Source: Robbsia sp. KACC 23696
GTDB taxonomy: Bacteria; Pseudomonadota; Gammaproteobacteria; Burkholderiales; Burkholderiaceae
Assembly: GCF_039852015.1 (NCBI RefSeq)
Contig: NZ_CP156627.1
Span: 744,001-808,000, forward strand
DNA length: 64,000 nucleotides
Direction of reading: 5' to 3'
The notes beneath the pieces are model-generated. The model was not told the origin of the DNA. It was given only the letters and a program-made list of their open reading frames with translations, and did no database searches. The position numbers and the translations under genes are program-made. Shown here piece by piece: positions 39,305-42,300 of the stretch. Position 1 is the stretch's first letter. Each line of letters opens with the position of its first letter.

Positions 39305-42300
39305 ATGAGTAATAGAGCCAGCGAATCGCTTGCCATTTCTGCCGCCTACGCGGCGTTGCCCGAAGAAAAACGGCGCATTTTTCGGCAGCGACTCTGGGAC
39401 AAAGGGATGTCGGGGCAGCAGCTCCCGATCCTTCCGTTCGCGGCACGCGGCACCGATTTTCCGCTGTCCTACGCCCAAGAGCGGCTGTGGTTTCTATGGT
39501 GTCTCGAACCAGACGCCCCCGGATATAACCTGGCGAGTGCCGTCCGCTTGCTCGGCGTGCTCGATCCGGGTCTCGTTCAGGGAGCGCTGCAGGCACTCGG
39601 CGCCGATCACGAAATTTTGAAGGCGCGGTTCATCGAACGCGATGGCGTGCCGCGTCAGACGATCGGACAGGATGCGTATTCCTGGCATGAGAACGATCTG
39701 CGGGCGATCCCGTCGGCCGAGCGCGAATCGGTGTTGCACGAACGGCTGGCGGCGCTGTCGCGCGCGCCGTTCGACCTCGCGCACGGTCCGCTTCTCCGCG
39801 TGACATTGCTGCGTCTATCGGCGCAAGCGCATGTGCTGCACTTCGCGACGCACCACATCGTCTCCGATGCCTGGTCGCTCGATGTGCTGACACAGGGCTT
39901 CGCGCGGCACTATATACGACTGCAATCGGGGACGACGGCAGCGTCGGCGGTACCTGCGGTGCAGTACGTCGATTATGCTGCCTGGCAACGCGAATGGCTC
40001 GACGTGGCGCGTCTCGATACGCAATTGGCGTATTGGCGAACGCGCCTCGGCACCGAGCATCCGGTGCTGGATCTCCCGGTGGCGCGCAAGCGAACGGGTT
40101 TGCGACGCAGCGAGGGCGGCCGACTTATCCGCACCTTGTCGACGCCGCTGACGCAGGCACTCCGCACGCTGTCGCGTGGGCAAGGCGCGACGTTGTTCAT
40201 GACCCTGCTCGCGACGTATAACGTCTTGCTGGCGCGTTACAGCCGTCAGCAGGACATTCGCATCGGCGTCCCGGTGGCAGGACGCGATCGGCCCGAAGTC
40301 GAGCGGCTGATCGGCTTTTTCGTCAATACCCTTGTGATCCGTGCCGAATTGGAGGGCGTGCGGCGCTTCGACGAATTGCTCGCGCAGGTGCGCGAGCGCA
40401 TGGTCGAGGCACAGGAGCATCAGGATGTGCCGTTCGCGCGATTGGTCGAGGCGCTGCAGCCGCAACGGAGCTTGAGCCATACGCCGTTGTTTCAAGCGAT
40501 GTTTAATTATGCCGCCGCCGGGCCCGGCGATGCGACGCTGCCCGGTCTGACGATCGAGCCGATCTCGGCGGGGACGGAGACGGCGCGTTTCGATCTGGTG
40601 TTGAACGTGGTGGAGAGCGATACGTTGTCGGTGTCGTTGACGTATGCCCGCGATCTCTTCGACGAGGCGGTGGTGCAGCGCATGCTGGATCACTATGTCG
40701 AGTTGCTGGAGCAGATTGGTGCGCAGCCCGATATCGCCTTGGGGCAGTTGCGCTTGGGCGTGGACCAGCGGTTCCAGCACGAACCGCCACGCCGGGCGTA
40801 CGAACCGGCGGTTCGACGGTTCGCGGCACAGGCGCGGCGCGAGCCGCTGGCGCCGGCGCTGCACTGCGAGGGCGTGCGCCTGAACTACGGGCAACTGGAC
40901 GCCTGGTCGACCGCGATCGCGCAACGCTTGCTGCAGCATGGGGCGCGCGCCGATGTGCGCATCGGCATTTGCATGACGCGCTCGGTGGGGCTGGTGGCGG
41001 CGTTGCTGGGCGTGATGAAGTCCGGTGCGGCCTTCGTGCCGCTGGATCCGGAGTATCCGGAGGACCGGCTTGCCTACATGATCGAGGATGCGGGCGTGGG
41101 CTGCGTGCTGGCCGATGCCGAGACGGCCCAGGCGCGGCAGACGCTGCTGCAGGGGCGTGAGGTGATCGTGGTGGAAGAGGCGGCGGTTGCGACCTCCTCT
41201 TCCGCGCCGGCGACAGCACCGATCGAGGTGCCGATCCATCCGGAGCAATTGGCGTATGTCATCTACACGTCGGGCTCGACCGGGCGTCCGAAGGGCGTGG
41301 CGATCAGCCAGCGCGCGTTGGCCTTGCACCTGGCGGACTTCCTGGAGACGTACGGGATCAGCGCACAGGACAAGCAGTTGCAGTCCTCGACGATCAACTT
41401 CGACGTGTCGCTGCACGAGATGCTGCCGGCGTTGATGTGTGGCGGGCAAGTAGAGATGCGTGGAGCGCAGCCCTGGGATCTGGAGACGATGAGCCGCCAT
41501 CTGGCCGAGGAAGGCGTGACGTTCTCGCGTATTCCGACGGCCTACTGGCAACAGTGGCTGCGCGAGCCACCGGCGGCCTCGCGGCTTGCGGCGCTGCGTC
41601 AGATCACCGTGGGCGGCGAAGGATTGCCGGGCGATGCGCTGCGGCAGTGGCGCGAAGGCCCGCTCGCGCATATCCAGCTGGACAATCTGTACGGCCCGAC
41701 GGAGACGACGGTGGCGTGCATGTATCGGCGCACGACGGCCGAGGACGTGACGCAGGCGATCGTCTCGATTGGCAAGCCCTATGCTTCGCGCAATGTCTAT
41801 GTGCTGGACGCGTCGGGCAATGAAGTGCCGCTGGGCGGGCTCGGTGAGCTGTGCATTGGCGGCGAGACGCTGGCGCGCGGCTATCTGGGACGCCCGGGCT
41901 TGAGCGCGCAGCAGTTCATCCCGAACCCGTTCGGTGCGGCGGGATCGCGGCTGTATCGCTCGGGGGATCTGTGCCGCCGCCGGGAAGACGGGACGATCGA
42001 TTTCCTGGGTCGGATCGACCAGCAGGTGAAGCTGCGCGGCTTCCGTATCGAGTTGGGGGAGATCGAGTCGGTGCTGCGGCAGGTGCCGGGGGTGGGGCAG
42101 GCGGCAGTGGAACTGCGCGGCGAGGGCGAGGGTCGTCGTTTGGTGGGCTATGTGTCGGGTGCCGCGGGCGCGGGCGCAATCGACGTCGCGGCGCTACGCG
42201 CGGGATTGGAAGGCAAGCTGCCCGCTTATATGGTGCCGAGCGCGTTCGTGGTGCTGGAGCGCTTGCCGGTGATGCAGAACGGCAAGGTGGATCGTCGCGC

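What the first reader, a model, noticed from the sequence alone, without database searches (positions are those of the whole stretch)
40814..42300. Unusual A-domain pocket D-V-H-S-T-G-L-V-A used twice: candidate graminine-activating domain
A1 and A4 carry a pocket I cannot match to a proteinogenic amino acid, including His at position 239 where Trp, Glu or similar is common. A siderophore with two graminines needs two such domains. The two are almost identical.
Basis: inference. Interest (0 to 1): 0.7.

Follow-up and report, generated by a model that had tools for sequence, protein, structure and literature searches.

The report
Graminine-activating domains of a known siderophore family
Two almost identical enzyme domains in this gene cluster carry, letter for letter, the published ten-residue pocket for graminine, an iron-binding and NO-releasing amino acid, so the cluster very probably makes another siderophore of the known gramibactin kind.

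Summary
A1 (40814-42298) and A4 (52952-54436) of the 5443-residue NRPS share one pocket and differ at 8 of 1485 bases and 2 of 495 residues. With the columns checked on Tistrella mobilis tistrellabactin A domains of known substrate, both domains read DVHRTGLVAK. That is exactly the code published for graminine (PMC10391617), where the product residue was determined. Immediately upstream lie a GrbD/SznF-like gene (36631-38103) and a GrbE YqcI/YcgG gene (38125-39216), the two genes known to make graminine. In a tree of 118 A domains, all 56 with this code form one group (SH-aLRT 99) that includes the Tistrella graminine domain. In 299 genomes of the family, all 22 with such a domain also have GrbD. 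The rest of the cluster, partly outside the window, adds an acyl-AMP ligase, an Asp module with a TauD hydroxylase, a TonB receptor and siderophore transport. A new member of a known kind.

The parts
35798..36634 (+). stand-alone type II thioesterase
   Evidence: Pfam PF00975 Thioesterase, E 7e-40
36631..38103 (+). GrbD homologue, full-length SznF-like N-N bond forming enzyme (490 aa)
   Evidence: phmmer hit to SznF 6m9r, E 6e-27 over residues 45-468; SznF cupin histidines 407, 409 and 448 align with His
38125..39216 (+). GrbE homologue, YqcI/YcgG family (Arg N-hydroxylase type)
   Evidence: Pfam PF08892, E 1e-64; weak GntA heme N-hydroxylase match, below NCBIfam cut-off
39176..55507 (+). NRPS-A, 5443 aa: C-A1-T-E-C-A2-T-E-C-A3-T-C-A4-T-TE
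   Evidence: Pfam domains of the first half; motifs and codes
40814..42298 (+). A1, graminine-type adenylation domain, code DVHRTGLVAK (His239 codon 41414-41416, Arg278 codon 41528-41530)
42650..43900 (+). epimerization domain of module 1 (approximate limits), predicts D-graminine
   Evidence: HHLVVDG motif at residue 1271, about 42986; E label
45321..46935 (+). A2 block, code DVWHVSLIDK (serine type), 97% identical to the A3 block
49803..51417 (+). A3 block, code DVWHVSLIDK (serine type)
52952..54436 (+). A4, graminine-type adenylation domain, code DVHRTGLVAK
40560..42447 (+). homogenised block shared with 52698-54585 (99.5% identical); about 73% identical on its 5' side, unrelated on its 3' side
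54740..55504 (+). terminal thioesterase domain directly after A4-T, no epimerase (approximate limits)
   Evidence: GWSLGG at residue 5263; TE label
55497..64000 (+). NRPS-B, runs out of the window to extended position 70994: acyl-AMP ligase, ACP, C-A-T, C-A-T-E, C-A-T, C, TauD
   Evidence: Pfam; codes DGEDIGTVSK, DVWHVSLIDK, DGEDHGTVTK
30132..34760 (-). MacA-MacB-outer membrane channel exporter, divergent from the cluster; link to the product is a guess
   Evidence: Pfam and NCBIfam
28835..29572 (+). 4'-phosphopantetheinyl transferase
   Evidence: Pfam ACPS, E 5e-16

Best explanation
A1 and A4 are graminine-activating adenylation domains of a gramibactin-type (C-diazeniumdiolate) siderophore synthetase. 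GrbE and GrbD turn L-arginine into L-graminine (known for homologues, inferred here). A1 and A4 adenylate it and load it on their carrier domains (inferred from code and descent). The module 1 epimerase would give D-graminine; the last module, with no epimerase, would give L-graminine before the thioesterase releases the peptide (inferred). Arg278 and His239 in the pocket plausibly bind the anionic diazeniumdiolate and exclude the cationic precursor arginine (inference).
For: Code identical at all ten positions to the published graminine code, with columns checked on six Tistrella domains of known substrate. The best hit in 72,556 plasmids is the Tistrella MobF graminine domain, 59.4% against 44.8% for the next. 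All 56 domains with the code form one group, SH-aLRT 99, one change on the tree. grbD and grbE homologues lie directly upstream. In 299 genomes of the family, 22 of 22 with a close A1 relative have GrbD, against 5 of 277 without; Fisher p 7e-29, not corrected for kinship. Siderophore genes complete the cluster: Asp-type A domain with TauD, TonB receptor, periplasmic binding protein, FecCD permease. No paper in the library gives this code to another amino acid.
Against: No enzyme assay and no product for this strain. Five GrbD genomes lack a full close A1 relative in their drafts; at least one (G127) has a piece of such a domain cut at contig starts, the others are unresolved. The order of the NRPS proteins, and so the peptide, is not established.
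Confidence: 0.95

Rival explanations
1. A1 and A4 activate another amino acid, such as N5-hydroxy- or acyl-ornithine, glutamine or arginine, and graminine is not used at these positions.
For: The nearest groups outside the graminine group include Gln and OH-Orn domains. Prediction from pocket codes is not proof.
Against: The code is exactly that of a domain whose product residue was determined as D-Gra. No ornithine N-monooxygenase was recognised among the cluster genes scanned. grbD and grbE would have no user of their product otherwise. Arg278 suits an anionic, not a cationic, side chain (inference).
Confidence: 0.03
2. Graminine is formed on the carrier protein: A1 and A4 load arginine, and GrbD and GrbE act on the tethered residue.
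For: GrbE is fused to the NRPS in Tistrella MobF and lies in long open frames in some relatives.
Against: Free synthetic L-graminine restored gramibactin production in grbD and grbE mutants (PMC6771848). The pocket lacks the acidic residues expected for arginine (inference).
Confidence: 0.02

Closest known systems
Tistrellabactin synthetase MobF, graminine module (Tistrella mobilis KA081020-065, pTM2)
   Same: Code DVHRTGLVAK identical; 59.4% identity over the domain; followed by an epimerase; GrbD and GrbE in the cluster
   Different: One graminine module instead of two; a hydroxamate from N-hydroxyornithine serves as a further ligand in Tistrella, with its own monooxygenase and acetyltransferase
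Gramibactin, megapolibactin, plantaribactin and gladiobactin synthetases (Burkholderia, Paraburkholderia)
   Same: Two graminines, beta-hydroxyaspartate, N-terminal acyl chain, GrbD and GrbE; reported to use the same graminine code (PMC10391617)
   Different: Published products contain D-graminine; here the second graminine module lacks an epimerase and sits directly before the thioesterase. Predicted composition differs (Ser-Ser between the two graminines). Their A domain sequences were not fetched by name here.
Graminine-type clusters of Burkholderia sp. Ac-20379 (L014) and Paraburkholderia fungorum ES3-20 (L015, L016)
   Same: Closest named relatives of A1, 75% and 71%; L014 and L016 end in Gra-T-TE; L016 also holds a domain with code DGEDIGTVS as here
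   Different: L014 has a threonine-type module between the graminine modules; products not known to me

Membership tests
graminine-activating A domain | pocket code DVHRTGLVAK | tested here: met
   A1 and A4 identical to it at 10 of 10 positions, columns calibrated on Tistrella domains
graminine-activating A domain | common descent with a domain of proven graminine substrate | tested here: met
   one group of 56 rows with MobF inside, SH-aLRT 99
graminine-activating A domain | activation of L-graminine in vitro | not testable with these tools
   needs ATP-PPi exchange
C-diazeniumdiolate siderophore cluster | GrbD (SznF-like) and GrbE (YqcI/YcgG) genes | tested here: met
   36631-38103 and 38125-39216
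C-diazeniumdiolate siderophore cluster | further Fe(III) ligand, beta-hydroxyaspartate in the gramibactin type | tested here: inconclusive
   A domain code DLTKIGHVGK (Tistrella Asp domain DLTKVGHVGK) and a TauD domain lie beyond the window; hydroxylation itself is not shown
C-diazeniumdiolate siderophore cluster | siderophore receptor and transporter genes | tested here: met
   TonB receptor, Peripla_BP_2, FecCD
C-diazeniumdiolate siderophore cluster | product with graminine that binds iron and loses NO (M-30 fragment) | not testable with these tools
   needs culture and mass spectrometry
SznF itself | working diiron N-hydroxylating domain besides the cupin | not tested
   alignment covers nearly the whole length and cupin histidines are kept; diiron ligands were not examined properly

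The most novel reading that the evidence does not exclude
The cluster makes a new, longer graminine lipopeptide siderophore with one D- and one L-graminine, whose two graminine pockets are kept alike by gene conversion; and the pocket pair His239/Arg278 is a dedicated clamp for the anionic diazeniumdiolate that keeps the precursor arginine out.
Probability: 0.3. Interest if true: 0.4.

Novelty: new member of a known kind. Interest (0 to 1): 0.2.

Why it matters
It adds a cluster for an iron chelator of a class that also releases nitric oxide in plant roots, and shows that a one-residue slip in pocket reading can turn a published code into an apparently unknown one. The strict link of the code with GrbD across genomes makes the code a good marker for graminine metabolites. 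The Arg278/His239 pair is a simple, testable idea of how an A domain tells graminine from arginine.

Tried and rejected
The whole NRPS was too long for the family scan, so its first half was scanned. First scripts failed on file names. An unknown substrate was considered and rejected once position 278 was read correctly. An assembly artefact as the cause of the A1/A4 identity was considered: the copies differ at 9 places in 1888 bases and have different neighbours, which argues against a simple misassembly but does not exclude errors. The organism was not identified; genus and species are not claimed. No structure was predicted, since pocket geometry could not be read out of the model tool.

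Full report
Observation. The stretch 40814-42300 is the first adenylation domain (A1) of a 5443-residue NRPS at 39176-55507. A4 lies at 52952-54436. They differ at 8 of 1485 bases and 2 of 495 residues, none in the pocket. The genome holds only these two near-identical copies.

Correction of the code. I aligned the A domains of the cluster with those of the tistrellabactin synthetases of Tistrella mobilis, whose product residues were determined by NMR and Marfey analysis (PMC10391617). The columns chosen return the six published Tistrella codes that could be read: DVWNVAMVHK, DVHRTGLVAK, DAEYAGTITK, DLTKVGHVGK, DATKIGEVGK and DAEDTGRISK. With the same columns A1 and A4 both read DVHRTGLVAK. 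The corrected code is exactly the graminine code stated in that paper, which also says that it matches the graminine domains of the earlier reported siderophores.

Context. Directly upstream are a type II thioesterase (35798-36634), a 490-residue protein that matches SznF over nearly its whole length (E 6e-27, SznF cupin histidines 407, 409 and 448 aligned with His), and a YqcI/YcgG protein. These are the expected GrbD and GrbE, the two proteins shown by gene disruption to be needed for graminine (PMC6771848). Downstream, partly outside the window, follow NRPS-B with an acyl-AMP ligase start and a TauD domain, a C-like/A/T protein with an aspartate-type code, a TonB receptor, NRPS-C with codes of the glycine and threonine type, a penicillin amidase family protein, and periplasmic binding protein and FecCD permease genes. 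The naming of glycine, threonine and serine from these codes rests on general knowledge of codes. The cluster thus offers two graminines and one hydroxyaspartate as iron ligands, as in gramibactin (inference). The order in which the NRPS proteins work was not established.

Relatives. A scan of one genome per species (84,980) with an alignment of A1, A4 and the Tistrella domain kept 64 loci. Among 240 A domains read, 67 carry DVHRTGL (mostly VAK, some IAK), and no other domain has Arg at 278; two Paenibacillus domains have His at 239 with otherwise different codes. In a tree of 118 domains the 56 with this code form one group with SH-aLRT 99, and MobF lies inside it. The pocket columns were not removed from that tree. 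In 299 genomes of the family, 22 have an A1 relative at E 1e-130 or better, and all 22 have GrbD; 27 have GrbD in all (Fisher p 7e-29; kinship among genomes makes this p too small). A strong GrbE match was found in all 27. Of the five GrbD genomes without a close full A1 relative, G127 has a 67% identical piece at contig starts and G274 a partial domain; the rest remain unexplained.

Module logic. A1 is followed by an epimerase, A4 by the thioesterase. Seventeen related loci also hold a graminine module directly followed by a short C-terminal region with a thioesterase-type GWSxG motif, so this is common in the family. Published products have D-graminine (PMC6771848); how the last residue gets its configuration in such synthetases was not settled here.

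Recombination. The A1/A4 identity is sharply bounded: 40560-42447 is 99.5% identical to 52698-54585, with about 73% identity on the 5' side and none on the 3' side, and the 3' edge lies at the GGDS carrier motif. A2 and A3 share a 97% block with similar edges. In the tree, the two graminine domains of one genome are each other's nearest in the window genome and in L014, L019, L021, L022, L042 and L044, while in loci L018, L024, L026, L028 and L029 they group by position. This points to repeated homogenisation in separate lineages (inference).

Verdict. What is new is only one more cluster of this kind, so interest is low.

Noticed in passing
40560-42447 and 52698-54585: A1 and A4 lie in a sharply bounded 1.9 kb block of 99.5% identity that ends at the carrier-domain GGDS motif; several related genomes show the same within-genome likeness, which suggests repeated gene conversion.
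   Followed up: partly
45321-46935 and 49803-51417: A2 and A3 (serine-type) share a similar block, 97% identical, with comparable edges.
   Followed up: partly
53536-55504: The last graminine module has no epimerase before the thioesterase, although published products contain D-graminine; 17 related loci look the same.
   Followed up: partly
genomes G036, G127, G206, G218, G274: Five genomes have GrbD and GrbE but no full close A1 relative; at least G127 has the domain cut at contig starts, others unexplained.
   Followed up: partly
36631-38103: The GrbD homologue is full-length SznF-like, so the part that corresponds to the diiron domain is present; whether it still binds iron was not examined.
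   Followed up: no
L010:13667-16291 (C2:830666-833293, beyond the window): A penicillin amidase family protein in the cluster, which may remove the acyl chain after assembly; an NTN hydrolase is also noted in the Tistrella cluster.
   Followed up: no
25023-26381: AtuA family gene (acyclic terpene utilisation), not part of the siderophore cluster.
   Followed up: no
21283-22488: Protein resembling a Fic adenylyltransferase, below the curated cut-off.
   Followed up: no
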